Source: Bdellovibrionia bacterium (GTDB lineage Bacteria; Bdellovibrionota; Bdellovibrionia; Bdellovibrionales; JAGQZY01). From it: a stretch of DNA of 64,000 nt. The translations under genes and the position numbers were made by a program. Shown here piece by piece: positions 2 through 55,919 of this stretch. Under the pieces are notes generated by a model that was given only the letters and a program-made list of their open reading frames with translations, ran no database searches and was not told the DNA's origin. The stretch spans positions 1 to 64,000 of the forward strand of contig JAUHWH010000007.1 of assembly GCA_030424715.1 (NCBI GenBank), given 5' to 3'. The first letter of the stretch is position 1. Every line of letters begins with the position of its first letter.

Positions 2-1729
<1,728 letters not shown>

Positions 1730-6338: not shown

Positions 6339-8249
6339 CTATCTCAAGGAATGTTCAGATAGAATCGTGTGGATGATTTCAAAAACAGTAAAGTCGTCCA
6401 TTGCCGGTGTGTTCATGTGAACATATATTTGTTCAATCAGTTCATTGGCCGCGTCGGCTTGCAAAACACGAGAACCCACGCCGGTGGACCGGCTGTGTAG
6501 CAGGAGCTTCCTCACCTCATCTTTCGGAGCATTTTTTAAAAAGTAAGTGATATTAAAGGCCGAATGACTGATTTGGTCGAGCTCACGACCACGGAAGAAC
6601 TGATTGTAGGCATGATGGTAGTCATCTCCAGCTTTGCGAGCAAAAACTTCAACCACTCGACGCGTGGCAAACTCAGACTCGCGAGCAATCGCACTACGGC
6701 CTCCGCGGAGAAGGCTGCTGCCACGCTTCTTGCTCCTCGCCCTGGTTCGAAAGGGTTTCACTAGAACGTCTGATTGTTGGTTTGCTGACTTTGAGAGCAA
6801 TTTTGAACCTTGCACGTGAGCCGCTCCAAAACCAAAACCGAGAAACAGAACTTCCATGGCCAAGATGGTGACAATCATCTTTTGCTGATCATGATAGGTT
6901 TCGCGTTGTGCATTCACCAACTCAAGAGTTCTTGCAGTCGCAACCTCGGGCAACTCATGCCGTTGGTGAAATCTCGTTTCTTTCTTAAGTTTTCGGTTGT
7001 CGCCCCTTCGCTTCACCACATCAATAAGAGTGACAATATTTAGGAGGACCAATCCGCCGAAAAACACGGTGGAACTAAATGGGGCCGTTACGACAAGGGC
7101 GATCACCGTGGCCGGCATAATATACGAGGTTAAGCCACTGACATTTTTATCAATACCTCTCACCAGGGTGGCTCGGTCCATCTCCTCCATAAGCCAGCAA
7201 AAGTGGCTCGCCAGTTCAGGATTATTCTCCAAAATTCGAGCCACTGCCAATGGGGCCGATTGGAAGTATTTCGCAAGCAAAAGAAGGCGTTCTTGTTCGA
7301 GCTCTGGAATGTCGTAATGTCTGCGGTCAGAAACTCGATCGAGCATACCAAACAGATTGGCTTTGTCGTACCATCTGAATTCAAGAAGGGCCGAGTGATC
7401 AAACTTCTGCCAACTTTCTTTCACTGTCCTAAAGTGCTGATCGAGAGCTTTTTTAAAGCGAAAGTCACTCAATCGTGTGGGGTGCTCAGGGTTGCGATAG
7501 TGAGAACCCCGCTTGCGGAAGTCTGAGAGTTGGAAGGTGCTGCCAAAATGCTTCTCGAGAGTGGGGGTACGCATTAAGGGTCCAGGGAATTCAAAAAGCA
7601 ATTGGATATAATGGTATTTGTAAGCCTCGTGATCGGGTTGACCGTTCTCGTCTCGGTGCTTGAGGATCGAGTTCAGTCCTTCGTAACCAATAAGGAGCTT
7701 TTCTTTGAGCTCGGCAAAGTTGTAGCGTGGCACCTGTTGGTCGATCAAGTCATCGACAACAATTTGGGCTTGGCTAGTGAGATAAGTGCGCTCATCTTTG
7801 TTGCACTGGTCTGCACACATGATGTCGGCCGCTCGCCGGGCAACCTTTTTGGTTTCTGTATTATAAAATGAATTGGTTAATTGTCTCGGCTCTTTAACAA
7901 AGTAAATCGACTCGGTGATGAATTCGATGGCCTGCTCTCGAACATCGAGCTCAATGAGTCCTAAAAACTGTTCAATAATTTGCACGCGATCATCAACAAG
8001 ATAGGGGTAGGATTCGGTGGTTCCTAGGCGTCCCAACGTCGGTACCTGAACAACGGACGGGTGAATCGGAGTTCCCAGAGAAGAGGTGATTGAGGTGTAG
8101 TTCTGAAGAGTCTGATCGTGAATCAGTCGGGGGCAGGTAAGCAGCGAGTGGTCTAAAACACTAGCGAAGCCATTGATCGGAATAAGGAATGCGGCTATTA
8201 GATTTGCGGACTTTATCAACAGCGCTGACAATTTTGGGCCTCGAGGCAC
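6339..8249 (-). CDS. Large exported or membrane protein of unknown function
   Basis: 636 residues, family not recognised. The frame is open further upstream to 8567, but GTG 8249 is the best start: AGGAG lies 7 bases before it and the product then begins with a signal-like segment (basic start, then LIAAFLIPINGFASV). The long central part is helical and charged. A hydrophobic pair near residues 375-420 (YIMPATVIALVVTAPFSSTV, FFGGLVLLNIVTLI) and another near 470-490 suggest membrane insertion. An Arg/Lys-rich stretch (TRARSKKRGSS) follows. Probably lineage-specific. If the ATG at 8459 were used instead, 70 residues would precede the signal-like segment. Confidence 0.65.
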   Translation of the reverse strand: MPRGPKLSALLIKSANLIAAFLIPINGFASVLDHSLLTCPRLIHDQTLQNYTSITSSLGTPIHPSVVQVPTLGRLGTTESYPYLVDDRVQIIEQFLGLIELDVREQAIEFITESIYFVKEPRQLTNSFYNTETKKVARRAADIMCADQCNKDERTYLTSQAQIVVDDLIDQQVPRYNFAELKEKLLIGYEGLNSILKHRDENGQPDHEAYKYHYIQLLFEFPGPLMRTPTLEKHFGSTFQLSDFRKRGSHYRNPEHPTRLSDFRFKKALDQHFRTVKESWQKFDHSALLEFRWYDKANLFGMLDRVSDRRHYDIPELEQERLLLLAKYFQSAPLAVARILENNPELASHFCWLMEEMDRATLVRGIDKNVSGLTSYIMPATVIALVVTAPFSSTVFFGGLVLLNIVTLIDVVKRRGDNRKLKKETRFHQRHELPEVATARTLELVNAQRETYHDQQKMIVTILAMEVLFLGFGFGAAHVQGSKLLSKSANQQSDVLVKPFRTRARSKKRGSSLLRGGRSAIARESEFATRRVVEVFARKAGDDYHHAYNQFFRGRELDQISHSAFNITYFLKNAPKDEVRKLLLHSRSTGVGSRVLQADAANELIEQIYVHMNTPAMDDFTVFEIIHTILSEHSLR

Positions 8250-8569
8250 TTTTGTACTCCTCTCTTCTTCGATTTCGAGTTTATACGCCTTGAGAAGAGC
8301 AAGATTCAGACCGTTGCAGCCATGTCGACGAAAGCGAGGCGACGTTGTGGTAACTGCAAACGGGAGAATGTCCGAAAAAAAACTTTTTATAGAGCTCAAA
8401 GCCTTGCGGATAGACAAAACGAAGTCCTTCGCTCGGCTGACGAAAATGGTCACTGTCATATTTTGTACAATGCTATCTTCTTTACAAGGTTTACAGTTTT
8501 TTTCCGTCAAATAACTTTGAGGTGATATTCTCTTCGAGTTCTTGAAATTCAAATAAGAAGGAGACAAAT
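8250..8569. other. Divergent intergenic region
   Basis: About 320 bases between the leftward 636-residue gene and the rightward 125-residue secreted protein gene. It is formally open in the leftward frame, but has no ribosome site at its ATG (8459) and its translation is unremarkable, so I read it as leader and promoter sequence for both genes. Confidence 0.45.
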
Positions 8570-11937: not shown

Positions 11938-14900
11938 TTACTGACCGACCTTGATAGTCGCATTGGGTACTTCGCCAAAGAAACCAGGCTCATACAAAGC
12001 TTCAGCCCGTGTGGGAGAAACATTGAACTGACCGGGATTGTTTAGCTGGTACTGGTAGGAGACTTCAGTCTGACCGGCACTGAGGGCACGAAAGTAGACT
12101 TTGTATCCAGCGTAGGATTTTTCAGCCATGCTATAAGCACCCCAACCGTCACCAAGGATATTGGCGCCACCAGGGATCGGATCAAAAAGAACCACGTGTT
12201 GCATGGGACCATTCACCGTCAACTTCACAGTCACCTTGATCATATCGCCAGCGCGGTAAACGCCGTCTTGGCTAGTGACATTCTCAGTGGTCTTAACCAC
12301 CTGAATGCCCTTGTAGTTCGCGGCCGTTAGCTTAACAGCTGACGAGGCTTGTACAGACACCCAAGGTTGACCTTCTCCAGAGTGGTTCACGGTAACAGTC
12401 GCGTTGTCTGCGGTCCAATCTGTGGACATGCCGCCTTCTTGAACTTCTTTATTCCAAACCGTTACGTTCGATAACATGCTGGCTGAGTTTGTAATCTCAG
12501 TTTTACCAGACACAGCAGTGGACTCGTAAGTTTTGGCAAATTCCATCATCGCGGCCACAACCCACGCTTTTGTGCGCATATTGTACCAGGCTCCCGCTTG
12601 GTTGGCGTTCACAAGGCCAGCGACCAAGTTGTCTAGGTAGTTGTCAGCACTTTTAGCACCAGAGACACGAGCATCAGCACTGAGAGCTTTTACCAGCTTA
12701 GCGGTACCAATGGTTTCGTCACTGTACCCCCACCAAGAGAAGGTCGAAACATCATTCAGTTTCGCCGACTTGTTGTTGAGAATAATCAGAGCATCTTTGG
12801 TGTAAGCGAACAGCTTAGACTGAGCAAACTGCCCACCGTCAAAGGCACTTTTTGCCATAGACATTTCCATAAGCGCACTCACCGGCCACTGATCAAGAGT
12901 CAGAGCTTCTACCGGAGCAAGAACTGCAGCGGCGTACTCTTGCGCGGTCTCTGGTTGAACACCATTCATGGCATTCAGAGCTTTCACTTTCGAATACATG
13001 GCCACAGAATCGTTTTGGGCCAAGTAATCTTCGCCGAGCTCACCCTTAAGGGCTTTCTCCATGGCGGTAACAAAAGTACTCTTTAGGCTGTCTGGCATGG
13101 CATCGGCTGCACCATAAGCACCAATGAGTGATAGCATATCGGCCGTCATCCAGAAGCTTCCAGTGCTGCTACCAGAGTAGTACTTTAGCATCCCGTTATC
13201 ATCCAATTGCGCAATCATCTCTGCGTAGACTTCAGAAAGACCGTTGCTAGAGACTAAGGCTTTGATCAGGCGATTTTCTAAGGTGAAGTCGCCGTAGGTG
13301 CTCTCTTCAATACTCTTTTGAACAATGGCACGAGTGGATTCAACAAGGCTGCTGAAAACTTTTGTGTCGATCTTCCCTTGGCCAGCAATGGCTTGAGGAT
13401 TTTTGTTCAAGCTAAACGTCTCTTGGGCTTTCTCCATTTGTACCATGTACTCGTCTTGCACAGACAAAGGAATGGCTGGGAGAACCCGTTGGGCTTCCGG
13501 AGTCAGTTGGTCAACAATGGTTCCGTTGGCATCAGTGACAACAACAGAGTAGTTGATAGAGCTGACTTTTTCAGAAACACTGAGGTTATCAACAGTCACA
13601 GGTTTAGAAGAAGCGCTCTCCACAGTTTGGCTGTTTGATAGAGTGCCCGCATCGACCACATTACCATTGGCATCAAGCATCTTGTAAGACACCGTTACGG
13701 TCAATTGACTGTCCTGCTTGCCATTGTTTTGCAAAGTCACGGTAACAGGAAAAACGTCCCCGGTGCGGCTCACTGGCGGCATGTTAGGGTAAGATTGAAC
13801 TTCTTGTGCTGATACATAGTTAGCGGCTCCGGAGCCGAATTTCTCAACACTGTCTTGCACAACCGCAATCACTTTAAACTTTGTAAGCGAATCATTGAGC
13901 TTGAAGCTAGTTTGAGCTTTACCGTTAACAACGGGAATATCGCTCTGCCAAGTCACAAGGGCATCAAACAATTTGCGTTTGAAGGTCTCGAGTTCACTAC
14001 CGGAACCACCTTCTTCTCCACCTTTGGCACCAGATTCCATGACAGCCTCAGCCAAAACAGCTTCTTCTACAGCGGCGGAGTTGATGCTTTTGTAAAGATT
14101 CATGGTCTCAATGCTGTGATCGCGCAGTCCCATCATGGCCGACAGAAGATCGGTCGTGTTGTTCTGCTTCATTTCAAGGATCTTTTCTTCGACGACAACA
14201 AGAGTCACCGACGCATTGGTCAGGTTGCCTTGCTGAGCGGCAACATCGACAGTCACTTGTGCCGTTTCACCGGGTTTGTACTCTTCTTTATCAAGAGACA
14301 CTTCAACGTCAGCGGCGTAGTTCGCCCAATCGATTTTGAGGTTGGAGTAGCCCAGTACAAACGAAGGTTTCCCCAAATCCATTTGATCGATCGAGACCGG
14401 CATTCCACTGCGACCGGTTGTCAAATAAACAGAAGCAAAGATGTTCGGTGCGTAGGCGGATTCAACAGGCACTGTGACATAGCCGTTGGCACAAGCCTGG
14501 GTGTCAACAAAGGCTTCCATAACTTCAGAGCGCTCTATTGAAACTAGGGCTGTACAGTCAGCAAAAGGGCTTTCAAATTTAAGCTCGGCTGACTCGCCGC
14601 CTTTGTAGTTCTCTTTATCAGCAGAGAGACTCAAGGTGAGGTCGTTGGACTGATAGCCACCATTGTAGCCGTAATCGCCGCCCACGTTGCCATTTTGATC
14701 GACCGTGAACTTGGCATAGGTGTTTTGCTGAGAGGACTTTGCAGTCACTGCAAAAACATAGCTTCCGAATTCTAAGCCAGTGGCTGAACAGTTGGCGACC
14801 CCATTTTCGGCTGATTGGCATTGGGCTTGCCAGTCGGTTTTCACCATTTCGTAATTAACATTGTTCTTGATGTATCCACCAAAAAGCTCTTCACCCACGA

Positions 14901-17760
14901 TATTGGCTTTAATCTGGTAAACCGCGAGGTCTAAATCAGATAGGTTTGTGTAGGGTTTGCCGTCTAGTCCTAGAATGACAACATTTAACGAGGCCAACTC
15001 AGGGGTTCCTTCAGTGACTGAAGCACCAACGTAAGAACCAGAGTTGTACACCTGACGAGAAGAAGAAAGAGTTTGGAACTCACCCATTTGATCTTGGTAT
15101 CGCATACGAACAACAAGGTTGTAGGGTTGCTTAGCCTGAGCGAGTAACTCACTTAAGGTTTGGCCTTTAGCAAAAAGCTCAGAGGCGATATCCACAGAGA
15201 GAGTACCATCTTGATCCGTCACAACATCAGAAACACTGGCTGTGTTTTGGCTTGAGGGAAGTCCAAGGTTTTGTGCCACTTCTTTACCATCCACTTGGTA
15301 CTTGCCGGCAGCAAAGTTGAAGCCTTCGTAGCCTTCAGCAGAGAAGTTGGCTGGGCTAAAGTAAAAAGAAACATCAACATCGAGGTCTTTTGCTCCCACA
15401 CCATTGGAGTACTGCACACTCCCGGCCACTTTAAGCTCACTGGGCTGGACGATGGGACCTTGAGGAAGATTAAGGTTTGCTGACATCAACGGAATTTTGA
15501 ATTCAGAAACGTCGATATCACTACTGCCAATATTACGAGTGTACTTAGAGCCGGCCGGTAGGTAGCTGATACGATAAGAGCCGAGCTCTGCTGACTTTGG
15601 CACTTTCCACTGAAATTCAGCGGTACCGTTTTTCCAGTCGAGGTCGAATTTGTATGAGACCTTAGGGTTGTTCATGTATTGAACGTTAACTGAGGCAGGG
15701 AGTTCATCGTTCTTGGCCGCTCTGAATCCAAGGGCCGTTGGCACGTTGGCCACGATTTTAACGGGAACTGTTTGACCGGGCTTGACCAGATTAACACCAA
15801 TAATGGCGTGGAGGTAAGCTTCGTTCACAGTGAAGTCAGAGCTATAATACTCAACACCTGGGGCATAGAGGGCGTTGCCTTCGTACACGGTATCTAGGCT
15901 AGAGGTTAGCGCAATATCCGTGGCGGTGCTGGCGGCTACGAAAAAAGCACTATCGTTGATCATGCCAAGAGCAGAGCCTTCACAGTTGGGAATAGAGTTG
16001 TTATTAAAAATGTACAGACCTTCAGAATCAGTGACACCAGAAGATTTTACGTTTTTGTTGCAACCATAAACTGAAATTTGGGCACCAGGCATGGCTTGGC
16101 CGGTACTAAGGCTTGTTACCCAAACGAGAGTTTCTTTCATACCTTTTTTCATATGGACAGCGAGGTCAGTCACCATCATTAGGCCCATTTTGGGGCGCTC
16201 GTCGCCGGCCAATTCGCTGGACATTTCAACGCCGTACAGGCCACTTTGGACACCCTGAGGAGTTTGAGCAAACGGAACCGTGATCAACTGTTTTTGGTTA
16301 ATGTCACCAGTGAGTTTAATTTTTTCAGTTGCAGTTTTAACGCCTGCAATATCAAAGGGGCTTTGGTAGTTCTTTTTGCTTTTCCAGCTCATTTCGTTGT
16401 TGCCGGCGATAAGGTCAATCATGGTTGGAACGTCGGTGACTGGCACCCATTGACCGGACTGTGAGCGGGGAGTCTTAAAAGTAAGCTCTTGATTGAGGTT
16501 CATCACCAAGATTGGCATTGCTCGGTTTGCTGGGACAGTTCTTTCGATAACGGAAAGTCCTTCGGCAAGTTTGATGGTTTCAGTAAAAGATCCGTAATTG
16601 AGCGCATGTTGTTTTTTGTTGAGAGGACGTCCATCACGATCGGTCAGGCCTGCCGGAAAAGTCACGATGGCTTCAGTATTGGGAGCCACTTGTACATGTG
16701 AGAAATCAAGAGATGTGACCATGGCTTCTTGGTTGTCGATGTCCACATTAAAATAAGACAAGGCCCAACCAGCCCACGACGAAACAACGCTATTTGATTT
16801 GGGAGACGCCGTCACGGTTTGACCATTTTCTGCGTCAGCAGGGACATATTCAATTTTGACTTGTTTGGCGTCTTGCCACTTCACTTCACCGTTAAAAGAC
16901 ACTTGCGGAGAAGACTCGGGGCGACAGTAGCTGCTGTTGTCTTCATTGGTCGCACAACGAACTTCAGCTTTGAAAGCATCACGTACTTTAAGGTCAATAA
17001 CGGAGGCGGCAGCTTGCACGTTAGGATTGTAAGCCGAGGTCACTCCAGACATCAGAAGAGTCAACTCAGCGCCCTCGATAAGGTCGCGGTTAACAGTAAC
17101 GATGGCCCAGCGAGTGTTGTCTTTTTCGAGTTGAAAGTCGTCGAAACGCCAACTGTAACGAGATTTGAAGACGTCAAAAAGTTTGTCACTCTCCGCCTGT
17201 GGTACCGGTGCGATTTCCATGGCATCTGATGGGTTGGTTTCCGTATTCTTATAAATAAGGATCGATTGACCACTGTACAGAGAGCTGCGGTCGATGTCTC
17301 CGTTGAAGACAATCATCATCACAGGATTTTTTTCGCGAAGCTCACGATTGAATCCCGGAAGAGGGTACACAGCGGACACAACCGGACCTTCAACAGTGAA
17401 TTTGTGTTGCAGACTGCCTTGAGCAAAAACCTTGTCCGTAACAGATTTCAGGCCGACAGCTTGCTCGATAGAGCAAACAGATCCGCCAGCCATGGGGCGC
17501 GGATCGCCGTATTCGTCTTTTGGTAGATTAAAGTTATAAACCCAAGTGGTGTTGTTGTCGGCCCAGTAACCGTCACCAGCCATTTCAGGCACACACTGAA
17601 CCGTGAACGCGCCGTCCACATTCATCATCGCTTCTGGAAAAGCAATTTTAATTTGTTGGGTATTGAGGGGAGCATTATTGGACGGAGAGAATGTCACTTC
17701 AGCAAAAGCATTGCTGGCCAATAAAACTACCAAAAACGTTAAAAGTCCGAATCTCTTCAT
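11938..17760 (-). CDS. Bacterial alpha-2-macroglobulin-like protein lacking the thioester
   Basis: 1940 residues. A signal peptide (MKRFGLLTFLVVLLASNAFA) is followed by many beta-sandwich (MG-type) repeats and a C-terminal helical domain of the macroglobulin thioester-domain type. Family members trap proteases in the periplasm. In thioester-bearing bacterial members a YGCLEQ motif precedes that domain; here the equivalent (about residue 1490) reads TYGDFTLEN, so the reactive Cys-Gln pair is absent. ATG 17760 was chosen because AAGGAGA lies 8 bases upstream and the signal peptide starts there. It lies next to pbpC, the same pairing as E. coli yfhM-pbpC, which suggests periplasmic defence or repair near peptidoglycan. 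Confidence 0.9.
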   Translation of the reverse strand: MKRFGLLTFLVVLLASNAFAEVTFSPSNNAPLNTQQIKIAFPEAMMNVDGAFTVQCVPEMAGDGYWADNNTTWVYNFNLPKDEYGDPRPMAGGSVCSIEQAVGLKSVTDKVFAQGSLQHKFTVEGPVVSAVYPLPGFNRELREKNPVMMIVFNGDIDRSSLYSGQSILIYKNTETNPSDAMEIAPVPQAESDKLFDVFKSRYSWRFDDFQLEKDNTRWAIVTVNRDLIEGAELTLLMSGVTSAYNPNVQAAASVIDLKVRDAFKAEVRCATNEDNSSYCRPESSPQVSFNGEVKWQDAKQVKIEYVPADAENGQTVTASPKSNSVVSSWAGWALSYFNVDIDNQEAMVTSLDFSHVQVAPNTEAIVTFPAGLTDRDGRPLNKKQHALNYGSFTETIKLAEGLSVIERTVPANRAMPILVMNLNQELTFKTPRSQSGQWVPVTDVPTMIDLIAGNNEMSWKSKKNYQSPFDIAGVKTATEKIKLTGDINQKQLITVPFAQTPQGVQSGLYGVEMSSELAGDERPKMGLMMVTDLAVHMKKGMKETLVWVTSLSTGQAMPGAQISVYGCNKNVKSSGVTDSEGLYIFNNNSIPNCEGSALGMINDSAFFVAASTATDIALTSSLDTVYEGNALYAPGVEYYSSDFTVNEAYLHAIIGVNLVKPGQTVPVKIVANVPTALGFRAAKNDELPASVNVQYMNNPKVSYKFDLDWKNGTAEFQWKVPKSAELGSYRISYLPAGSKYTRNIGSSDIDVSEFKIPLMSANLNLPQGPIVQPSELKVAGSVQYSNGVGAKDLDVDVSFYFSPANFSAEGYEGFNFAAGKYQVDGKEVAQNLGLPSSQNTASVSDVVTDQDGTLSVDIASELFAKGQTLSELLAQAKQPYNLVVRMRYQDQMGEFQTLSSSRQVYNSGSYVGASVTEGTPELASLNVVILGLDGKPYTNLSDLDLAVYQIKANIVGEELFGGYIKNNVNYEMVKTDWQAQCQSAENGVANCSATGLEFGSYVFAVTAKSSQQNTYAKFTVDQNGNVGGDYGYNGGYQSNDLTLSLSADKENYKGGESAELKFESPFADCTALVSIERSEVMEAFVDTQACANGYVTVPVESAYAPNIFASVYLTTGRSGMPVSIDQMDLGKPSFVLGYSNLKIDWANYAADVEVSLDKEEYKPGETAQVTVDVAAQQGNLTNASVTLVVVEEKILEMKQNNTTDLLSAMMGLRDHSIETMNLYKSINSAAVEEAVLAEAVMESGAKGGEEGGSGSELETFKRKLFDALVTWQSDIPVVNGKAQTSFKLNDSLTKFKVIAVVQDSVEKFGSGAANYVSAQEVQSYPNMPPVSRTGDVFPVTVTLQNNGKQDSQLTVTVSYKMLDANGNVVDAGTLSNSQTVESASSKPVTVDNLSVSEKVSSINYSVVVTDANGTIVDQLTPEAQRVLPAIPLSVQDEYMVQMEKAQETFSLNKNPQAIAGQGKIDTKVFSSLVESTRAIVQKSIEESTYGDFTLENRLIKALVSSNGLSEVYAEMIAQLDDNGMLKYYSGSSTGSFWMTADMLSLIGAYGAADAMPDSLKSTFVTAMEKALKGELGEDYLAQNDSVAMYSKVKALNAMNGVQPETAQEYAAAVLAPVEALTLDQWPVSALMEMSMAKSAFDGGQFAQSKLFAYTKDALIILNNKSAKLNDVSTFSWWGYSDETIGTAKLVKALSADARVSGAKSADNYLDNLVAGLVNANQAGAWYNMRTKAWVVAAMMEFAKTYESTAVSGKTEITNSASMLSNVTVWNKEVQEGGMSTDWTADNATVTVNHSGEGQPWVSVQASSAVKLTAANYKGIQVVKTTENVTSQDGVYRAGDMIKVTVKLTVNGPMQHVVLFDPIPGGANILGDGWGAYSMAEKSYAGYKVYFRALSAGQTEVSYQYQLNNPGQFNVSPTRAEALYEPGFFGEVPNATIKVGQ

Positions 17761-17920
17761 TATCGAGTTCTCCTTATGTATGTTTGGTTTCTTGGCACTT
17801 CTATGGGGGCTTTTAGCAAATGGCAAAAAATGGATTGGGGATTGAAAAATCTATCAAAAAGGGGTTGCAATGACTCACCGCCAGCTATGTTTTTGTTAGA
17901 TCTGAGTTAGGATTTTGCCC

Positions 17921-20071
17921 CTAAAGAACCTTGAAGCGGGTTAGGGATAGTCGTACTTTTTTTTCATCGAAGAGTTCAAAAACGTGCTCACCCCGTTGAA
18001 TGTCATCAATAACGAACTGGCCTTCTTTCAACTGAAAAGTTTTTCCTTTGAATTCCAAAGTGGTTTTGGGCGGCAGAGTGCCCGCCAGTTCCACAAAGAT
18101 TTTGGTGGAGTCCTGATTTTTGTGAGGGTTCAGGGTGAGGGTCGATCCACTGACCGGAAAGGTAAAACTGATTGTCGAAGCTTTTCCTTTCTTGATCACC
18201 CCGTTTTTGGGTTCCGTGCCTGGCAGGAAGTACTCGGATTTTAGGCCTCCACCATTACGATGGGTGATCTCCGCTCTCACGATATTCTCGGGGGGCGTCG
18301 GAGGGGTGCTTTTGCGGTTGTGATGAAGATAGGTGACGATTTCGTTCCAACTGGGGGCGGCCCCTGTGACACCACTCACCCCGCGCATGGAGGTGGAGTC
18401 AAAGTTTCCGGCCCACACGGCCACCGTGTATTCCGAGCTAAAGCCAACACACCAGTTGTCCCGTAAGGCTTTACTGGTGCCTGTTTTCACCGCTGTCCAG
18501 ACACCAGTCTCTAGGGCGGAGTTCCAGCCGAAGCCAATTTGGCGGGCATTGGGGTCAGAGAGAATGCTCTTTAATAGAAAGGCCGTCTCTGGAGACATCA
18601 AGCGTCTTCTTATGCCCCGTTGAATTTTTGGCGTGTGGGATAATATGACAGGTGTCATGAGCCCGTCGTTTGCCAGAGCCCGATAGACGTTTGCCAGTTC
18701 GAGAAGTCGGACTTCGGCAGCACCAAGTGCCAGAGAGGCACCATAGGTGTCCGGATTGTCCATGTCTTGAAAGTTGAGAGCTTTGACAGTGGCATAGGTT
18801 TCTGGGAGCTTTAGCATTCGCACCACTTTGACAGCGGGCACGTTCAGTGACGAGGCCAAGGCTTGCCTGACGGAAACCGTCCCATGAAACTTGCTGTCGT
18901 AGTTTTTGGGTCGGTACAGGCCACCCGACCACTTTAAAACGGTGGGGTTGTCCTCTATGAGAGAAGCGGGTGTGAGAATTTTTTTCTCTATCGCTCGCCC
19001 ATACAAAAAGGGCTTAAGGGTCGAGCCGGCCTGTCGAGGCGCATCGGCCCCGTCGACTTTTGAAGCGTCGGAGTACTTTTTGATCGCCCCGACATAGGCC
19101 AAGAGGTTGCCCGTTTTATTTTCGATAACAACGGCGGCAGCATCGTGCACATTGCGATTCTGCAGGTACGACAGATTTTTTTGCAGAATGGCGTAGACCT
19201 TTTGTTGAAGGTCTTTGTTGATATGGGTTTGAACAGGCTGGGATGACTGCTGCGCTTGAAACAAGCGGCGGGCCAGGTGGGGGGCGATGTTTTGAGACTC
19301 GTTGTTTTTCTTTGTCCCTGAGAACAGACGGGCCAAGGGGGCGTCCATCTTTTTGCAGTCTGTGTCCTTGTTTTGTCTTTTTGCCAATCGGCAGGCCCGT
19401 TTCACAAGGCTCTCAGCATTGCGATTGGGTGCTTTTATCAATGCCGCCAACAAATAAGATTCGGCGGTATTTAAAAAGCGAGGGGACTTGGCGAGATACA
19501 GTTGGCTCACGGAGTGCACGCCCTGAGTTTCTCCTTTTAGGTGAACCAAGTTTAAGTAGGCCTCTAAAATTTCTTGTTTACTCCATTTCAGATCGAGACT
19601 AAATCCGCGCACAATCTGTCTAATTTTCGCGAAAACAGACCCCTTTACGATTGGTTCATGTTCCAGTAAAACTTTGCGATCAATAAGGTCAGCCGTTTGC
19701 ATCGACAAGGTGCTGGCGCCCTGTATGCGTCGTGTGGTCAATGTCACTTTGATGGCGCGAGCAAGGGCCAAAAAATCGACACCCCAATGATCATAAAAGC
19801 GTTTGTCCTCAACCTGAATCACGGCCTGTCGGATCTCTTGCGAAAAGGAATTCAGGGGTAACCAGACCTGGCGTCGCTTCTTGTGATCGACCCGAACCTT
19901 CTGGATAACCTGGTCATTATCATCCAGCAAAAAGCGGTTAGACCCACTGGCGATCTGGATGATCTCAGAAGGTGAGGGGAGTTGCACTAGTGTAATAATA
20001 AAAAACAAACCCACCCCGAGAATCGGGGTTGAAAGCAAGGCAGCGACAGATTGTTTTTGCGAAAGCTTCAC
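17921..20071 (-). CDS. pbpC: Penicillin-binding protein 1C (bifunctional glycosyltransferase/transpeptidase)
   Basis: 716 residues, inner-membrane peptidoglycan synthase. An N-terminal membrane anchor (about 10-30) is followed by the GT51 domain with EDKRFYDHWGVD (catalytic Glu89) and QGASTLSMQ (118-125). The transpeptidase has SxxK at Ser350-Lys353 (AGSTLK), SxN at Ser408-Asn410 and KTGT at 529-532. The last 90 residues match the beta-rich C-terminal domain typical of PBP1C. GTG 20071 is the apparent start; its ribosome site is weak, and translation may depend on the small ORF that ends 8 bases upstream. Macroglobulin follows 160 bases downstream. Confidence 0.95.
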   Translation of the reverse strand: MKLSQKQSVAALLSTPILGVGLFFIITLVQLPSPSEIIQIASGSNRFLLDDNDQVIQKVRVDHKKRRQVWLPLNSFSQEIRQAVIQVEDKRFYDHWGVDFLALARAIKVTLTTRRIQGASTLSMQTADLIDRKVLLEHEPIVKGSVFAKIRQIVRGFSLDLKWSKQEILEAYLNLVHLKGETQGVHSVSQLYLAKSPRFLNTAESYLLAALIKAPNRNAESLVKRACRLAKRQNKDTDCKKMDAPLARLFSGTKKNNESQNIAPHLARRLFQAQQSSQPVQTHINKDLQQKVYAILQKNLSYLQNRNVHDAAAVVIENKTGNLLAYVGAIKKYSDASKVDGADAPRQAGSTLKPFLYGRAIEKKILTPASLIEDNPTVLKWSGGLYRPKNYDSKFHGTVSVRQALASSLNVPAVKVVRMLKLPETYATVKALNFQDMDNPDTYGASLALGAAEVRLLELANVYRALANDGLMTPVILSHTPKIQRGIRRRLMSPETAFLLKSILSDPNARQIGFGWNSALETGVWTAVKTGTSKALRDNWCVGFSSEYTVAVWAGNFDSTSMRGVSGVTGAAPSWNEIVTYLHHNRKSTPPTPPENIVRAEITHRNGGGLKSEYFLPGTEPKNGVIKKGKASTISFTFPVSGSTLTLNPHKNQDSTKIFVELAGTLPPKTTLEFKGKTFQLKEGQFVIDDIQRGEHVFELFDEKKVRLSLTRFKVL

Positions 20072-20238: not shown

Positions 20239-20535
20239 AAACTCTCCTTGATACATAATGGCGCCATCATAGGGGGAGAGTACGAAAGATTCTACTGCTC
20301 TTGTAAAAGAGTAAAACTGTGTAGGAATTGGTCAATTTCTCCAGTCGAATTTGATGACTCACTCGCATTTCAAAAGACTCCTGGCCCGTCACTTTGGGTT
20401 GTGTCTATTGAGAGATCGGGCCACGTCGCGAGAGCTTGCCCGTAGACTTTCGTGACAGTCATGAAATTTAGACAACAAGGTTTGCATCTTGCTTCGAGAA
20501 TGGTTAGTTTGGCCGAGCTGAAGGGATGTCGTACT

Positions 20536-21516
20536 ATGAAATGGGATTACCAAAGACCACTGAAAGACTGGCCACTCTATAACGTCGAAGAGCGGCTGCA
20601 AAAATACAAAGCGCAACTCAAAAGCGAATTGCGTGATCACGGACTCTCTGTGGACTTTCATCTTTGGGTCTCCGACGAGTGGTTCTGCCCTGACGGTGTT
20701 CCTGGTTTTGCTCTACCTTTTTACCTTTTCAACCCCGATTTAATGAAAATCCATCGTATGGAGACGGGGCGGGTTGAGGGGCGCACCGACCGAGAGATCC
20801 TCAAGCTGATGCGCCACGAGCTGGGACACGCCATCGACAATGCCTACGGCTTACGGAAAGACAAAGAGCGCCAAGATGTCTTTGGGCCTTCTTCACGGGA
20901 TTACCCTGAGCACTATGCACCGCGAGCCTACTCAAAGAGCTTTATTCGCTATTTGGGCGACCATTATGCGCAAAGCCACCCTGACGAGGACTTTGCTGAA
21001 ACTTTTGCCTACTGGTTAGATCCTGAGAAGATGTGGCACCTTAAAAGTTTTTCAAAGAATCTCCAAAAAAAGCTCCACTGCATGAATCGCATGATGCGGA
21101 AGATTCGCAATCAACAACCCAAGCTAACCAATCAGTTCGTTGTGGAGCCGATTGCGAAGAACTCAGAGACCCTTGGCGAGTATTACGCTCGCTTTAAAAG
21201 AGAGCGGGCTTTGATTTGCTACAAGAGGATCGATCGCAACTTAACAAGGGCTTTTTCGTTCTCGTCTGGCCAGGCGTCAACGGTCACTTTGGCCCAGTTT
21301 CTTAAATCTCGGAAAAAGCAAATGGCGCGAGACGTAGCGAAAACAGAAGGCGTCTACAAATATGAGGCAGAGCTGGCTCTTAAAAAAATCATCGAGCGCG
21401 CAGAAGGTCTGGGTATTGAGGGGGCTGAAGAGGAATTTCAGTCGAAAGCCCCTACATTAGTGAGGCAAAACTTCCGATATCTAAAAGAAAAGGATCAACT
21501 TCGGTTTTATCTATGA
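20536..21516 (+). CDS. Putative zinc metallopeptidase paired with an ATP-grasp ligase
   Basis: 326 residues, probably cytoplasmic (no signal peptide). A zincin signature HELGH (His94, Glu95, His98) is followed by a downstream Glu in DEDFAETFAYW (Glu155), the usual third zinc ligand of gluzincin-type enzymes. It resembles the putative zinc-binding metallopeptidases that sit next to D-Ala-D-Ala ligase-like ATP-grasp genes in many proteobacteria. The start at 20536 was chosen for AAGGGA 9 bases upstream; in-frame alternatives lie at 20452 and 20461. Its stop overlaps the next gene's ATG by 4 bases, so the two are coupled. A peptide made by the ligase could be its substrate (inference). Confidence 0.75.
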   Translation: MKWDYQRPLKDWPLYNVEERLQKYKAQLKSELRDHGLSVDFHLWVSDEWFCPDGVPGFALPFYLFNPDLMKIHRMETGRVEGRTDREILKLMRHELGHAIDNAYGLRKDKERQDVFGPSSRDYPEHYAPRAYSKSFIRYLGDHYAQSHPDEDFAETFAYWLDPEKMWHLKSFSKNLQKKLHCMNRMMRKIRNQQPKLTNQFVVEPIAKNSETLGEYYARFKRERALICYKRIDRNLTRAFSFSSGQASTVTLAQFLKSRKKQMARDVAKTEGVYKYEAELALKKIIERAEGLGIEGAEEEFQSKAPTLVRQNFRYLKEKDQLRFYL

Positions 21517-22529
21517 GCCTATTGAAAGTCTTGGTCCTGGTTCACCAAGACTGCGTGCCTCCGGAGGGAGCCACTCCTGAAACGGCGGACTGGGCCCATT
21601 GGAAAACAGAATTCTACGTCAAAAAGGCCTTGCAGCAGTTGGGCCATCGCTTTGTTATTTTTGGGGTCTCCGATCAACTCAACGATCTCCAAAAGCAAAT
21701 TCAAGAATTTCGACCCAGTATTGTGTTCAACCTGTTAGAGGAGTTTAACGGAGAGCCCAGTTTTGATAGCCATGTGGTGGCTATGCTAGAACTTCTCGGG
21801 GTCCCATACACCGGCTGCAACCCCCATGGGTTGGCGTTGGGGCGCAATAAAGCCCTGAGTAAAAAAGTACTGAACTATCACAATATTCCCACACCGGGTT
21901 TTTTTACGGCGGAGTTGCATCGACAGCCGAAGGTGCCATCCCACCTGAAGTACCCATTGATCGTGAAGTCGTTAAGCGAAGAGGCCTCATTAGGCATTAG
22001 TCAGAAGTCGGTGGTTCACAATGCCAAAGACTTAGAAAAACGAATGGCCTTTATCCACAGCAGTCTCGGAACTTCGGCATTGGTTGAAGAGTTTGTCCCG
22101 GGTCGAGAGCTCTATGTGGGTGTTGTGGGGAATCGCAATTTGAAGGTTTTTCACCCCTGGGAGCTGTCGTTTGGTGACCTGGCCCAGAAAGGGCACGGCA
22201 TCGCCACCCGCAACGTCAAATTCAATAAAAAATACAGCCAGAAGCACGGCATTAAGAGAGGAGCCGCTCAAGGACTGTCCCCGTTGTTGTTGAAAAGGAT
22301 AGAGAGAATGAGTCGCGAGGTCTATCGTGCTCTCAACCTCTCTGGTTATGCTCGTCTGGACTTTCGGTTATCGGAGTCAGGACAGCTCTATTTTCTCGAA
22401 GCCAACCCCAACGCCGAGCTGGCCCATGGTGAGTGTCTAGCTAATGCTGCGCAACACGCAGGCGTGGTCTACAGCCAGCTCATCACTAAAATCTTGAGTC
22501 TAGGTCTAAACTATGAGCAGGCAGCCTAG
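21513..22529 (+). CDS. D-Ala-D-Ala ligase-like ATP-grasp enzyme
   Basis: 338 residues with the ATP-grasp architecture of D-alanine-D-alanine ligases: an N-terminal domain with NLLEEF and GVPYTGCNP, the nucleotide-binding region (KYPLIVKSLSEEAS, VEEFVPGRELYVGV) and metal-binding ARLDFRL with FLEANPNAEL. A bona fide Ddl usually ends in a VNTLPGMT-type motif; here NPNAELAHG replaces it, so the acceptor is probably not D-Ala. It likely joins a carboxylate to an amine in an unidentified peptide or amino acid. It overlaps the metallopeptidase gene by 4 bases. Role in peptide synthesis or tagging is inferred from this pairing. Confidence 0.78.
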   Translation: MSLLKVLVLVHQDCVPPEGATPETADWAHWKTEFYVKKALQQLGHRFVIFGVSDQLNDLQKQIQEFRPSIVFNLLEEFNGEPSFDSHVVAMLELLGVPYTGCNPHGLALGRNKALSKKVLNYHNIPTPGFFTAELHRQPKVPSHLKYPLIVKSLSEEASLGISQKSVVHNAKDLEKRMAFIHSSLGTSALVEEFVPGRELYVGVVGNRNLKVFHPWELSFGDLAQKGHGIATRNVKFNKKYSQKHGIKRGAAQGLSPLLLKRIERMSREVYRALNLSGYARLDFRLSESGQLYFLEANPNAELAHGECLANAAQHAGVVYSQLITKILSLGLNYEQAA

Positions 22530-28829: not shown

Positions 28830-29495
28830 TTATAGTGGTGAAGGTAGCTGAGGATTCTTACAGCTACGGAACAAATAAAGGGCCTCTAAATATTGACGCT
28901 CGTCATCAGAAAGGGCGGGGAGCCCAACTTTCGCCATTTCTCGGTGAATGTGCTGAAAGCACAGGGCCGCGGCCACAGAAATATTAAAGCTCTGCACAAA
29001 TCCTTGCATGGGGATGAAGACTTTTTCGTCAGCCATTTCGGTCAGACGGGGGCTGGCCCCATCCCTCTCGTTACCGAAGCAAAGGGCCACCGGCTGGTCG
29101 AAGGAGCACTCTTGGATCGGGATACCTCCGTCCAAGTGAGTGACCACAATCTTGTAGCCCTGCTCCTTCAACTGGGTGATACAAGATTCAGTGTCCGCCC
29201 AATGGGTTTGTAGCAGCCACTTGTCAGCCCCTTGGGTGACTCGTTTTGATTCTTTAAAGGTATCGATTTCCACGATTTGGTGAAACAGGTGAAAGCCAAA
29301 GGCCTCGGCACTTCTCATAACAGCACTCGTGTTGCCGCGGTCATAGATGTTTTCAGTGACCGTAATTAGATTTTTGTTTCTTTTCGCCAGGACGTCATGA
29401 ATTCTTTGCAAACGCTCGGGGCGCACTTGTCGACTCAGTTCAGCGACCACTTGTTGGGTGTCAAAACGTTGTTCGTCCAAATCGATTGTGTTCAC
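28830..29495 (-). CDS. trmH: tRNA (guanosine-2'-O-)methyltransferase TrmH-type (SpoU family)
   Basis: 221 residues. SpoU motifs: ENIYDRGNTSAVMRSAEAFG (motif 1), ALCFGNERDGAS (motif 2) and MQGFVQSFNISVAAAL (motif 3), which form the SAM-binding knot. TrmH methylates G18 in the tRNA D-loop. The most likely start is GTG 29495, overlapping the speE stop (GTGA); a TTG at 29501 is possible. It is the third gene of the AdoMetDC-speE-trmH operon. All three genes use S-adenosylmethionine or its decarboxylated form, though a functional link is speculative. Confidence 0.92.
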   Translation of the reverse strand: MNTIDLDEQRFDTQQVVAELSRQVRPERLQRIHDVLAKRNKNLITVTENIYDRGNTSAVMRSAEAFGFHLFHQIVEIDTFKESKRVTQGADKWLLQTHWADTESCITQLKEQGYKIVVTHLDGGIPIQECSFDQPVALCFGNERDGASPRLTEMADEKVFIPMQGFVQSFNISVAAALCFQHIHREMAKVGLPALSDDERQYLEALYLFRSCKNPQLPSPL

Positions 29496-30364
29496 ACCCA
29501 ACTCATCTTTGGTAATGGAGTTAGGCTGTCTCCGTGTTCATCCATCATGAACTGAGGAAGCATAAAGGACCCCCGGTGGATTTCAGGAGAGTAATATTGA
29601 AATTTCTGTTGCACTCGAGCTTCAGAAAAATCGCGCAACGGGCATAGGCCCTTCGAGGCAAAAGTGAAAGACCACAGACCACTGGGGTAGCTCATATTAC
29701 AGTAATTGTAGATATGCACTTTCGGAAAGACTTCGGCAAGAATCTTTACTAACACCTTTTGCATTTTCATATCGTAGTAGGGCGACTCACCTTGTGAGAC
29801 AACGATACCGTCATCAACCAACCGCTCATTGATGTCGCGATAAAAATCAACATTAAACAGGGGCGTGGCCGGCCCGATGGGCTCTGAGGAGTCCACAATA
29901 ATCACATCAAACTTATCCGTAGATTGCTTCATAAAGGCCACACCATCTTGAATATGGAGTTTGACCTTTGGGTCGCTAAGCATCGATGAGGTCTGTGGGA
30001 GAAACTTTTTACTGGCCTCGACCACCATGCCGTCGATCTCAACCATGGTCACTTCTTGCACGCCTTCATGTTTAAGAACTTCACGGACGGTACCGCCATC
30101 GCCACCGCCAATAACCAAAACCTTTTTCGGGTTGGGGTGGGTGAACATGGGAACATGGGTGATCATGTCGTGATAAATAAACTCGTCTTTTTCAGTGACC
30201 ATGATCATTCCGTCATGAGCCAACAAAACGCCATGCCCGGTTGTCTCTACAACCTCAACTTTTTGAAACTCGCTTTGTTCAGAGAAGAGTCGGTTCTTCA
30301 GCCGAAAACGCAGGCCAATGTCATCGTGCTTCTCTTCAAACCAGTCTTGGTTGTGATCGCTCAT
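29492..30364 (-). CDS. speE: Spermidine synthase
   Basis: 290 residues, putrescine aminopropyltransferase using decarboxylated AdoMet. Signatures include VLVIGGGDGGTVREVLKH, VTMVEIDGMVVEASKKF and DVIIVDSSEPIGPATPLF (catalytic Asp region). The start ATG 30364 has AGGAGA 8 bases upstream. It directly follows a eukaryotic-type AdoMet decarboxylase gene (12-base gap), which supplies its cosubstrate, so the two form a compact pathway module. Confidence 0.96.
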   Translation of the reverse strand: MSDHNQDWFEEKHDDIGLRFRLKNRLFSEQSEFQKVEVVETTGHGVLLAHDGMIMVTEKDEFIYHDMITHVPMFTHPNPKKVLVIGGGDGGTVREVLKHEGVQEVTMVEIDGMVVEASKKFLPQTSSMLSDPKVKLHIQDGVAFMKQSTDKFDVIIVDSSEPIGPATPLFNVDFYRDINERLVDDGIVVSQGESPYYDMKMQKVLVKILAEVFPKVHIYNYCNMSYPSGLWSFTFASKGLCPLRDFSEARVQQKFQYYSPEIHRGSFMLPQFMMDEHGDSLTPLPKMSWV

Positions 30365-30376
30365 GTTCAGATTCTC

Positions 30377-31309
30377 CTAAAATTTCACAGGTCGTTGTTC
30401 GTTGTCATTCGGTTGGTAATATGAAAAATACTGAGTGGCATAGCCCGAAGGTAACTTTTCAGCAAATTGTCGTTTCATGATAAATGAGTCGAAGTCAGGA
30501 CGCTCTATTTTTTCATTGTTAAAGAGTACAAGATCAAAGTTCACAGGTTTGAACACCTGCACCACTTTTTGAGCCCACTCCACCTGATCTTCTTTTTTAA
30601 AAGCGTTGGTTTCAAAACTAATGTAGCTTCCTTCGCTTTCGGGGGTGACGTGAATTGTGAAATAGCGGTTGCCATGGATGGCATTCAACGAGTAGCCCAT
30701 GGGCTCAAAGACAAAGTCGTCGACGTCTCCCATAACGATGTCATTAATACCAGAGCGTTTTCGTAGATCTTCGGCATCACAGCCTTTGCAGTCTCGAAAC
30801 AGAGCCATAACTTCTGGAGCAATACCGTGCATAAGCACTTCCATGGTATGGTCGTCAGGTGCCGGTTGGTAGTTTTTATCACAGGAGAAGAGATACAGGT
30901 GATGTTCGTCTTCTCGTCCATAGCGCATGGCTTCGCCATCAAACCACTGTCTCAGGGTTTCAACATCTTTAAAAAAATGGGTGGTCTGTTCTTGGGGCAA
31001 GAGCTCGTTCTTACGTTCGTAGAAAAAGGCGTCAATGTCCGAAGCTTGGTAATGGGTCATCAGGTGTTCCACTGCGGAGACCAATTGGGTGGTTCCACAG
31101 GTGATCATCACCAAATAATGGTCGTAGACAAACAAGGAGCTTTCAGACAATAGGTAGGCCGTCATCGACTCATTGGAGATTTCAGAGAGAATCTGCGCTT
31201 TTGATACGGCCACCAGAGACTCCCAAAAGGCGCGCGGCTGTTGGCGCAAAGGGGCCACCGATGGTTTAAATATGACTTCGATTTTCTTTTCAGAGCCTTC
31301 AAAAAACAT
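30377..31309 (-). CDS. speD: S-adenosylmethionine decarboxylase, eukaryotic-type
   Basis: 310 residues, pyruvoyl-dependent, producing decarboxylated AdoMet for spermidine synthesis. It matches the eukaryotic proenzyme class, not the short bacterial SpeD: FFEGSEKKIEV at the N-terminus (Glu4 and Glu7 equal human Glu8 and Glu11), self-cleavage site LLSESSLF (Glu56-Ser57, human 67-68), and ITCGTT with Cys71 exactly 15 residues after the cleavage Glu, as for human Cys82. The C-terminal TIHVTPESEGSYISFETN matches the eukaryotic active-site segment. First gene of an operon with speE and trmH. The start has AAGGA 9 bases upstream. Horizontal origin is possible. Confidence 0.93.
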   Translation of the reverse strand: MFFEGSEKKIEVIFKPSVAPLRQQPRAFWESLVAVSKAQILSEISNESMTAYLLSESSLFVYDHYLVMITCGTTQLVSAVEHLMTHYQASDIDAFFYERKNELLPQEQTTHFFKDVETLRQWFDGEAMRYGREDEHHLYLFSCDKNYQPAPDDHTMEVLMHGIAPEVMALFRDCKGCDAEDLRKRSGINDIVMGDVDDFVFEPMGYSLNAIHGNRYFTIHVTPESEGSYISFETNAFKKEDQVEWAQKVVQVFKPVNFDLVLFNNEKIERPDFDSFIMKRQFAEKLPSGYATQYFSYYQPNDNEQRPVKF

Positions 31310-31441
31310 GGGGAGTCAGTCCTTGGGGTTAGGGCATCGTTTGTTATAGCCAACGTGCTGATAAGTGCTCTGAATAACTGGAAGAAACAAAAAAAACAAG
31401 GTGGGGCGGATAATGTGAAAAATCTATGGTAGAAGCCCTGT

Positions 31442-32429: not shown

Positions 32430-33296
32430 CTATCGGTTTGCACCGCTTGTCATTTGTTGTTTTTTGCCAGCAGGAAGCGCTTTCAAAGCTTTGCCAATGG
32501 CTCTCAATGGCTGAACAAGAAGCATATCAACCAGGTCGATAATTCCTTGCACAACGATATTAAGGGTTCCAACGATAAGAATCTTTAAAAAGGCCTTAAA
32601 CTGTCCTTTAAGAAGATAAGAAAAAGCTTTTGCTACGTTGCAAAGGATGTCACCAACGAGGGTCACCATCGCTCGAACGCCATTGGCGATATAACCAACG
32701 GTGGTAGCAATGATCCACTTTGTACCTTTTAAAACTTTGGAAATAACAATGAATGGCAGGGCAAGAACCTTGGCGCCGTTGTCGGCAAAAAGATTAGCTG
32801 CCGAGTTACTCAAGCGGATGGCGCCATCAAAGAAAACGTCACTGGCTTTAACGATAGCGAATTCAACCACTGTTACGCCAGCGTTTACAGTCGCTGCCGA
32901 AAGAAGAATCACGTTACCGCCGGCAACCACAACACAGTTCACTGAGCCGAAGAGGCGGTATTTTTTGGCGTTGCCAAGAAGACACTGACCTGTGCGTTGG
33001 GCTTCTCCAACAACCGCTTTGATAGAGGCGATGGTGGCGCGTCCCAGTCCTTCAATGGTGTGTCCAGTGACCATAAGCTCACCACCAACCCACTCAAAAG
33101 CAGCTTGTACGGGTTGAGCAATCTTGTCGACATTGGCGACGTGGGTTTGGATGGCGCTGTTCATGTTGTTTTGGGCGATTTTGTAATCACTCAATGCAGC
33201 AACAGCGGATGAAGTGTTGCAAGAGTATGCAGCCATTAATGGTCCAGATGTGAGGATCATGCAGAGGCTAAGTATAGCAGATGAAATTAATCTCAT
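32430..33296 (-). CDS. Exported hydrophobic protein, unknown function
   Basis: 288 residues with a Sec signal peptide (MRLISSAILSLCMILTSGPLMA). The mature part is Ala/Val/Ile-rich with several long hydrophobic or amphipathic segments (for example near 120-145, 178-215 and 232-262) and few charges, so it may associate with a membrane. Four cysteines are spread through the mature chain. No recognised domain. AAGGAG lies 6 bases before ATG 33296. A stable hairpin sits about 30 bases upstream in its leader. Probably lineage-specific. Confidence 0.7.
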   Translation of the reverse strand: MRLISSAILSLCMILTSGPLMAAYSCNTSSAVAALSDYKIAQNNMNSAIQTHVANVDKIAQPVQAAFEWVGGELMVTGHTIEGLGRATIASIKAVVGEAQRTGQCLLGNAKKYRLFGSVNCVVVAGGNVILLSAATVNAGVTVVEFAIVKASDVFFDGAIRLSNSAANLFADNGAKVLALPFIVISKVLKGTKWIIATTVGYIANGVRAMVTLVGDILCNVAKAFSYLLKGQFKAFLKILIVGTLNIVVQGIIDLVDMLLVQPLRAIGKALKALPAGKKQQMTSGANR

Positions 33297-55389: not shown

Positions 55390-55919
55390 ATGTTTGTGTG
55401 TTTTGTAGCTCCAAGTCGAATCTTTCGGAAAGCACTTTCGCTCAAGCGACCTTGTTCAGTGAAGAACTGGTCGCCAAAGACATTGGTATGGTTTACGGCG
55501 GCGGCTTGTTGGGCTTGATGGGGCATTTTGCCGATCGGATCATTGAAAGAAAAGGTCGAACCATTGGTGTCATGCCTGAGGGCGCTTTCGATAGTGAGGT
55601 TGCTCATCTCGGATTAACCGAGTTGATCTATACAAAAGACATGATGGACCGTAAGCGCAAGATGATGGATCTTTCAGATGCCTTTGTTGTGTTCCCGGGT
55701 GGTATCGGGACGATGGACGAAGCCATTGAGGTCATCACCTGGAAGACCATTTACAAATTTGAAAAACCCATTTTATTTTTTAATTGGGAGGGCTTTTGGG
55801 ACCCCTTCCTTGAAATGCTAAAGTCTTACGAAAAAACCGAGTTGTTTTATCCCGAAACCATGACTGCGTTTCAAGTGGTCGACAACATCCCTGACTTAAT
55901 GAGAGGTCTTCATGCTTAA
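55386..55919 (+). CDS. LOG family protein (TIGR00730 type)
   Basis: 177 residues. Signature [16 protein letters not shown] and an N-terminal VCVFCSSKS Rossmann strand, with [12 protein letters not shown]. Members include cytokinin-activating phosphoribohydrolases (LONELY GUY) and related nucleotide N-glycosidases; bacterial roles are mostly unknown. It overlaps fumC by 4 bases and the next gene by 8, so it is part of one transcription unit. Confidence 0.93.

What the first reader, a model, noticed from the sequence alone, without database searches (positions are those of the whole stretch)
30377..31309. Eukaryotic-type AdoMet decarboxylase in a bacterial spermidine operon
The enzyme carries the eukaryotic proenzyme signatures (FFEGSEKK, self-cleaving SESS, CGTT 15 residues after the cleavage Glu, TPESEGSYISFET) and not the short bacterial SpeD layout. 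It is followed directly by speE and trmH. Most bacteria use a different SpeD class, so this suggests transfer from a eukaryote or an old bacterial branch of the family. The E. coli-like putrescine activation should be checked, since human AMD1 needs putrescine.
Basis: partly seen in the sequence, partly recalled or inferred. Interest (0 to 1): 0.72.

Follow-up and report, generated by a model that had tools for sequence, protein, structure and literature searches.

The report
Eukaryote-type spermidine enzyme in bacteria
This bacterium makes the donor for spermidine with the version of the enzyme usually found in animals and plants; the gene is an old, settled bacterial one rather than a recent import, and such bacterial versions were already known.

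Summary
Window 30377-31309 (-) encodes a full-length class 2 (eukaryotic-type, PF01536) S-adenosylmethionine decarboxylase. Every processing and catalytic residue checked is present, and its model matches the human proenzyme. It lies in an operon with a bacterial-type speE and a TrmH-like gene, and no class 1 SpeD was found in the genome. SpeA and an agmatinase-like gene elsewhere can supply putrescine.

It is not an isolated or recent import. Class 2 genes occur in 69/291 sampled genomes of the phylum (45/163 genera), 15/248 Elusimicrobiota, 113/117 Shewanellaceae, and a few Acidobacteriota and Eisenbacteria. They nearly always sit beside speE, or in Shewanella beside speA/speB. All bacterial forms fall on one side of a 98/98-supported branch from the four eukaryotic sequences available. 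Composition is native.

Functional class 2 AdoMetDCs in bacteria, attributed to ancient transfer from eukaryotes, are already published. New here are the breadth of distribution, the operon conservation and an active-site Glu-to-Gln difference in most bacterial forms. Direction of the ancient transfer stays unresolved: AU tests allow bacteria beside any sampled eukaryote. Putrescine dependence is predicted weak or absent.

The parts
30377..31309 (-). class 2 (eukaryotic-type) S-adenosylmethionine decarboxylase proenzyme, 310 aa; predicted self-cleavage between Glu56 and Ser57
   Evidence: PF01536 E 3e-71; PDB sequence hits; AF2 pLDDT 88.7, pTM 0.89, best Foldseek match human proenzyme 1jl0 E 2e-28, TM 0.89
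31139..31141 (-). Ser57 codon, predicted precursor of the pyruvoyl group (human Ser68)
   Evidence: alignment to human 1msv/1jl0; Glu-Ser invariant in all 70 bacterial class 2 rows compared
29492..30364 (-). speE, spermidine synthase (bacterial type), 290 aa
   Evidence: NF002010 E 1e-104; best PDB matches T. maritima 1inl and B. subtilis 1iy9 spermidine synthases (species from my knowledge); GGAGAA ribosome-binding-like site just before its ATG
28830..29501 (-). SpoU/TrmH-family RNA 2'-O-methyltransferase, 223 aa, overlapping the end of speE
   Evidence: PF00588 E 2.5e-31; best NCBIfam model TrmH, below its cut-off; neighbour also in many loci of the same order
31320..31324 (-). AAGGA ribosome-binding-like site 10 bases before the AMD start codon
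   Evidence: read directly from the sequence

Best explanation
The gene is a functional class 2 AdoMetDC that is an old, resident gene of this bacterial phylum. Mechanism: the proenzyme folds as two fused class 1b-like domains, cleaves itself at Glu56-Ser57 and turns Ser57 into the pyruvoyl group; this decarboxylates AdoMet, and the neighbouring SpeE moves the aminopropyl group to putrescine to give spermidine. Putrescine comes from arginine through SpeA and an agmatinase-like ureohydrolase encoded close together elsewhere in the genome. Shown here by sequence: family, predicted fold, catalytic residues, operon, no class 1 SpeD found, distribution, tree. Inferred: self-cleavage, activity, spermidine production, and weak or no putrescine requirement. 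The ultimate ancient source (eukaryotic or bacterial) is left open.
For: PF01536 3e-71 and PDB hits; AF2 model TM 0.89 to human proenzyme. Human Glu8, Glu11, Glu67-Ser68, Cys82, Ser229 and His243 equivalents invariant in all 70 bacterial rows. One PF01536 copy and no PF02675 in the genome. speE directly follows in 62 of 65 phylum loci with enough sequence, and in nearly all Elusimicrobiota and Acidobacteriota loci. Shewanella carries speA-AMD-speB instead. SpeA at G000:C15 with an agmatinase-like gene about 0.7 kb away on the same strand. 69/291 phylum genomes carry class 2 and only 7 of those also have PF02675. Bacteria against eukaryotes 98/98; the window family groups together at 98/94. AMD and SpeE distances correlate, Mantel rho 0.48, 0 of 999 permutations as high. 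GC of the gene is slightly below, and GC3 within, the range of its neighbours.
Against: No biochemistry for this protein. It misses the TIGR00535 equivalog cut-off. Li et al. 2019 (abstract from memory, not read here) report some bacterial class 2 AdoMetDCs beside an MFS-spermidine-synthase-like fusion without spermidine, so AdoMetDC does not always mean spermidine; here, however, the neighbour is an ordinary SpeE. Only four eukaryotic sequences, two of them alpha chains only and one pieced from exons, so nesting within eukaryotes is not excluded.
Confidence: 0.88

Rival explanations
1. Recent horizontal transfer from a particular eukaryote (for example a protist prey or host) into this lineage.
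For: The class is eukaryotic-type by convention; transfers of the gene between bacteria are visible in the tree, so the gene can move.
Against: Relatives in three genera of the own family and 45 genera of the phylum, 46-60% identical within the family against 39% to human; bacteria lie on one side of the tree; near-native composition, bacterial SpeE.
Confidence: 0.03
2. Ancient eukaryote-to-bacterium transfer, followed by long inheritance and bacterium-to-bacterium spread (the published view). This shares the function and the present-day status with the best explanation and only adds an ultimate source.
For: Stated in PMC10407285, citing Li et al. 2019; [quoted passage not shown]
Against: Bacterial diversity (five phyla, pairs down to about 39% identity) is comparable with human-potato (36%) and human-T. 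brucei (31%) identity, and no sampled eukaryote is favoured as donor.
Confidence: 0.65
3. A neofunctionalised class 2 homologue that decarboxylates something other than AdoMet, such as arginine or ornithine, as known for class 1b relatives (PMC10407285).
For: Precedent in class 1b; human Glu247 (listed among SAM-binding residues in PMC3686867) is Gln in most bacterial class 2 rows.
Against: The window protein keeps Glu at 247 and the other AdoMet-site residues checked: Phe7, Leu65, Glu67, Phe223; it adjoins speE and is the only AdoMetDC found in a genome with SpeA and SpeE.
Confidence: 0.04

Closest known systems
Human AdoMetDC (AMD1; PDB 1jl0, 1msv)
   Same: Whole fold, proenzyme cleavage Glu-Ser, Cys82/Ser229/His243/Glu247 equivalents, and putrescine-pocket Glu15, Asp174, Thr176, Glu178, Glu256 equivalents
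   Different: 39% identity over 265 columns; shorter loops; Lys80 is Ile and Leu13 is Lys; encoded in an operon with speE
Bacterial class 2 AdoMetDCs of Li et al. 2019, Biochem J 476:2579 (known through PMC10407285; abstract recalled, paper not held)
   Same: Same class in bacteria; reported as functional and as originally acquired from a eukaryote
   Different: Distribution found here is wide (the window's Bdellovibrionales-containing phylum, Elusimicrobiota, Acidobacteriota, Eisenbacteria, almost all Shewanellaceae); overlap with their species list not checked
T. brucei AdoMetDC (5tvf) and potato AdoMetDC (1mhm)
   Same: Same family and fold; T. brucei also has Ile in place of human Lys80
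   Different: 27% identity each; no prozyme paralogue here (one copy); plants lack the human putrescine site (PMC3686867)
Class 1b SpeD (T. maritima 1vr7/1tlu)
   Same: Pyruvoyl mechanism; class 2 is structurally two fused class 1b chains (PMC10407285)
   Different: Only about 115 residues align, TM normalised to the query 0.27-0.30

Membership tests
Class 2 AdoMetDC (PF01536) | Match to the PF01536 profile above its curated cut-off over most of the protein | tested here: met
   240.7 bits against 22.2, profile 3-305 of 343
Class 2 AdoMetDC (PF01536) | Glu-Ser cleavage site and processing/catalytic residues (human Glu8, Glu11, Glu67, Ser68, Cys82, Ser229, His243) | tested here: met
   All present, and invariant in 70 bacterial rows
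Class 2 AdoMetDC (PF01536) | Two fused class 1b-like domains in one chain (alpha-beta-beta-alpha sandwich) | tested here: met
   AF2 model pTM 0.89, TM 0.89 to human proenzyme; predicted, not solved
Class 2 AdoMetDC (PF01536) | Self-cleavage, pyruvoyl formation and AdoMet decarboxylation | not testable with these tools
   Needs purified protein
NCBIfam TIGR00535 (SAM_DCase equivalog) | Score above the equivalog cut-off of 233.15 | tested here: not met
   197.8 bits; a Shewanella member scores 115
Class 1a/1b SpeD (PF02675) | Match to PF02675 | tested here: not met
   No PF02675 match in the window protein or in the whole genome
Human-like putrescine-activated AdoMetDC | Acidic putrescine pocket (Glu15, Asp174, Thr176, Glu178, Glu256) plus Lys80 | tested here: inconclusive
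   Five positions kept, but Lys80 is Ile and position 13 is Lys, which may occupy the pocket
Spermidine operon (AMD-speE) | Same-strand adjacency conserved between lineages | tested here: met
   62 of 65 phylum loci with enough sequence, and nearly all Elusimicrobiota and Acidobacteriota loci

The most novel reading that the evidence does not exclude
Class 2 AdoMetDC arose in bacteria and reached the ancestor of eukaryotes from them, with the bacterial forms found here (and perhaps the remote 407-aa Acidobacteriota relatives) as survivors of the bacterial stem. This would overturn the view that class 2 is a eukaryotic invention.
Probability: 0.13. Interest if true: 0.75.

Novelty: new member of a known kind. 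Interest (0 to 1): 0.38.

Why it matters
Class 2 AdoMetDC is described as a eukaryotic invention that some bacteria borrowed. A phylum-wide, operon-embedded bacterial set, with members in four other phyla, turns the direction and age of that transfer into a question a eukaryote-rich rooted tree can answer. It also gives small bacterial models for testing how putrescine regulation and the active-site Glu247/Gln switch evolved in a human drug-target family.

Tried and rejected
Recent eukaryotic transfer: not supported (tree, composition, distribution). Phage or plasmid carriage: no related gene in viral contigs, phages or plasmids. Rooting the class 2 tree with the 407-aa Acidobacteriota relatives (L126-L129): only about 80-100 C-terminal residues align locally (hhalign E 9e-6 for a single comparison, probability 83%) and the AF2 model is poor (pLDDT 47.6), so it was not used and no fold search was made with it. 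AU tests for a particular eukaryotic sister: bacteria + human, + potato, + T. brucei, + protist all allowed (p 0.47-0.56). Wider eukaryotic sampling was not possible: no eukaryotic sequence collection was at hand. Potato and T. brucei alpha chains were recalled and used only after they matched PDB chains; the two residues in which the recalled T. brucei chain differed were set to the PDB letters.

Full report
Observation. The ORF at 30377-31309 (-) is a 310-aa class 2 AdoMetDC. PF01536 scores 240.7 bits (E 3e-71) and the best PDB sequences are human, potato and T. brucei AdoMetDC. An AF2 model from 13 bacterial sequences of loci fetched here (pLDDT 88.7, pTM 0.89) has the human self-processing intermediate 1jl0 as its best PDB match (E 2e-28, TM 0.89). 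Class 1b SpeD structures match only about 115 residues (query TM 0.27-0.30), as expected for a two-domain class 2 enzyme.

Active site. With human numbering, Glu8, Glu11, Glu67, Ser68, Cys82, Ser229 and His243 are invariant in 70 bacterial class 2 rows. AdoMet-site residues listed in PMC3686867 (Phe7, Leu65, Glu67, Phe223, Glu247) are all present in the window protein. Across bacteria, however, position 247 is Gln in most rows: 22 of 38 in the phylum, 17/17 Elusimicrobiota, 9/9 Shewanella, 4 of 5 Acidobacteriota; the single Eisenbacteria row has Asn.

Putrescine. The human contacts Glu15, Asp174 and Thr176 (PMC3686867 table) and also Glu178 and Glu256 are kept. Lys80 is Ile, as in T. brucei, or Leu in all bacterial rows, and Leu13 is Lys in 69 of 70 (Arg in the other). 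From my own knowledge, plant enzymes place Arg side chains in this pocket and are active without putrescine. I therefore predict little or no putrescine requirement (inference). In this MAFFT alignment potato Asp is placed at 174 by a gap; an ungapped reading puts Val there, so that cell should not be used.

Operon and pathway. AMD, speE and the TrmH-like gene are co-directional and tightly packed. SpeE is bacterial in type: its best PDB matches are 1inl and 1iy9 (T. maritima and B. subtilis), ahead of eukaryotic spermidine synthases. AMD is single copy and the genome has no PF02675 SpeD. The only two PF02784 proteins found are LysA and a 638-aa SpeA. An agmatinase-like ureohydrolase lies about 0.7 kb from speA on the same strand, with one small membrane-protein-like frame between; it scores 161 bits, just under the TIGR01230 cut-off of 174. 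The likely route is arginine, agmatine, putrescine, spermidine.

Distribution. PF01536 matches: 69 of 291 genomes of the phylum, 45 of 163 genera; Elusimicrobiota 15 of 248; Acidobacteriota 4 of 297 above the cut-off; Shewanellaceae 113 of 117; Eisenbacteria 1 of 47. A scan of the GTDB species genomes with one strict pattern gave 34 loci; the bacterial ones belong to these same groups, apart from two MAGs titled only 'bacterium' and one doubtful record name. That scan surely misses many: it finds three Shewanella where one search finds 113. In the own phylum, class 1 SpeD is found in 129 of 291 genomes and overlaps with class 2 in only 7, so the two classes mostly replace each other. No relatives in viral contigs, phages or plasmids.

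Neighbourhood elsewhere. speE follows AMD on the same strand in 62 of 65 phylum loci with enough sequence, in nearly all Elusimicrobiota and Acidobacteriota loci and in the Eisenbacteria locus. Shewanella loci with enough flank have speA-AMD-speB instead. AMD and SpeE sequence distances correlate (Mantel rho 0.48, 0 of 999 permutations as high), so the pair has largely travelled or descended together.

Tree. A careful tree of 24 bacterial and four eukaryotic sequences separates bacteria from eukaryotes at 98/98; the window family groups at 98/94, and Shewanella falls with one family (f17) of the phylum at 99/99. Broader quick trees agree on the bacteria/eukaryote split; in the broader tree the Elusimicrobiota and Acidobacteriota sequences mix with a few lineages of the own phylum, which suggests exchange between bacteria. 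Because bacteria form one side, four eukaryotes are trivially the other side. Where bacteria attach within eukaryotes is undecided (AU p 0.47-0.56 for each of four alternatives). Long eukaryotic branches add to this.

Comparison with the literature. PMC10407285 states that some bacteria encode class 2 AdoMetDC originally acquired from eukaryotes, citing Li et al. [quoted passage not shown] Li et al. is not in the library; I know its abstract from memory only (bacterial class 2 enzymes functional, phylogenetically limited, some beside an MFS-spermidine-synthase-like fusion). The finding is therefore a new member of a known kind. 'Phylogenetically limited' looks too narrow on present genomes, and the question of direction deserves a rooted, eukaryote-rich tree.

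Verdict. Real, functional by every sequence criterion used except one curated score cut-off (TIGR00535), old in its lineage, already known as a kind. Moderate interest, mainly evolutionary.

Noticed in passing
L126:661-1884(+), L128:1375-2598(-), L127, L129, L139-L156: A highly conserved 407-aa protein in one class of Acidobacteriota (18 of 142 genomes) with weak similarity to the C-terminal domain of class 2 AdoMetDC and motifs EESHASY, NTCGDS, PPGYT, LHVTP that recall the cleavage site, Cys, Ser/Tyr and His of class 2. Possibly a remote, unnamed pyruvoyl-enzyme branch; the AF2 model was too poor to decide.
   Followed up: partly
L101, L103, L104, L132, L133, L135, L137: Shewanella carries its class 2 AdoMetDC in speA-AMD-speB order (or next to speA where flanks are short), and nearly every Shewanellaceae genome has the gene; its sequences fall with a family of the window's phylum in the tree.
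   Followed up: partly
L102:5805-6900: A contig of a Verrucomicrobiaceae MAG carries an intron-split class 2 AdoMetDC: almost certainly eukaryotic contamination of the MAG.
   Followed up: partly
L087 / L027: A contig named Nitrosovibrio sp. Nv4 in its record has the same length as one in a genome placed in the window's phylum (G066, family f20) and the same AMD match: the record name looks wrong.
   Followed up: no
L068 (G273), L119/L121 (G531), L069 (G239): Shortened or internally deleted class 2 AdoMetDC frames, apparently decaying copies.
   Followed up: no
family f2 of the own order, e.g. G005, G048: These genomes lack class 2 and have PF02675 SpeD inside reading frames of about 430 aa, perhaps fusions.
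   Followed up: no
window 11938-20071 (-): A 1962-aa bacterial alpha-2-macroglobulin next to a 716-aa penicillin-binding protein with transglycosylase and transpeptidase domains.
   Followed up: no
window 20452-22529 (+): A putative zinc metallopeptidase (Peptidase_Mx) overlapping a D-Ala-D-Ala ligase-like ATP-grasp gene.
   Followed up: no
window 524-1729, 6339-8567, 32430-33296, 55912-56778: ORFs of 288-742 aa without any Pfam match at E 0.001.
   Followed up: no
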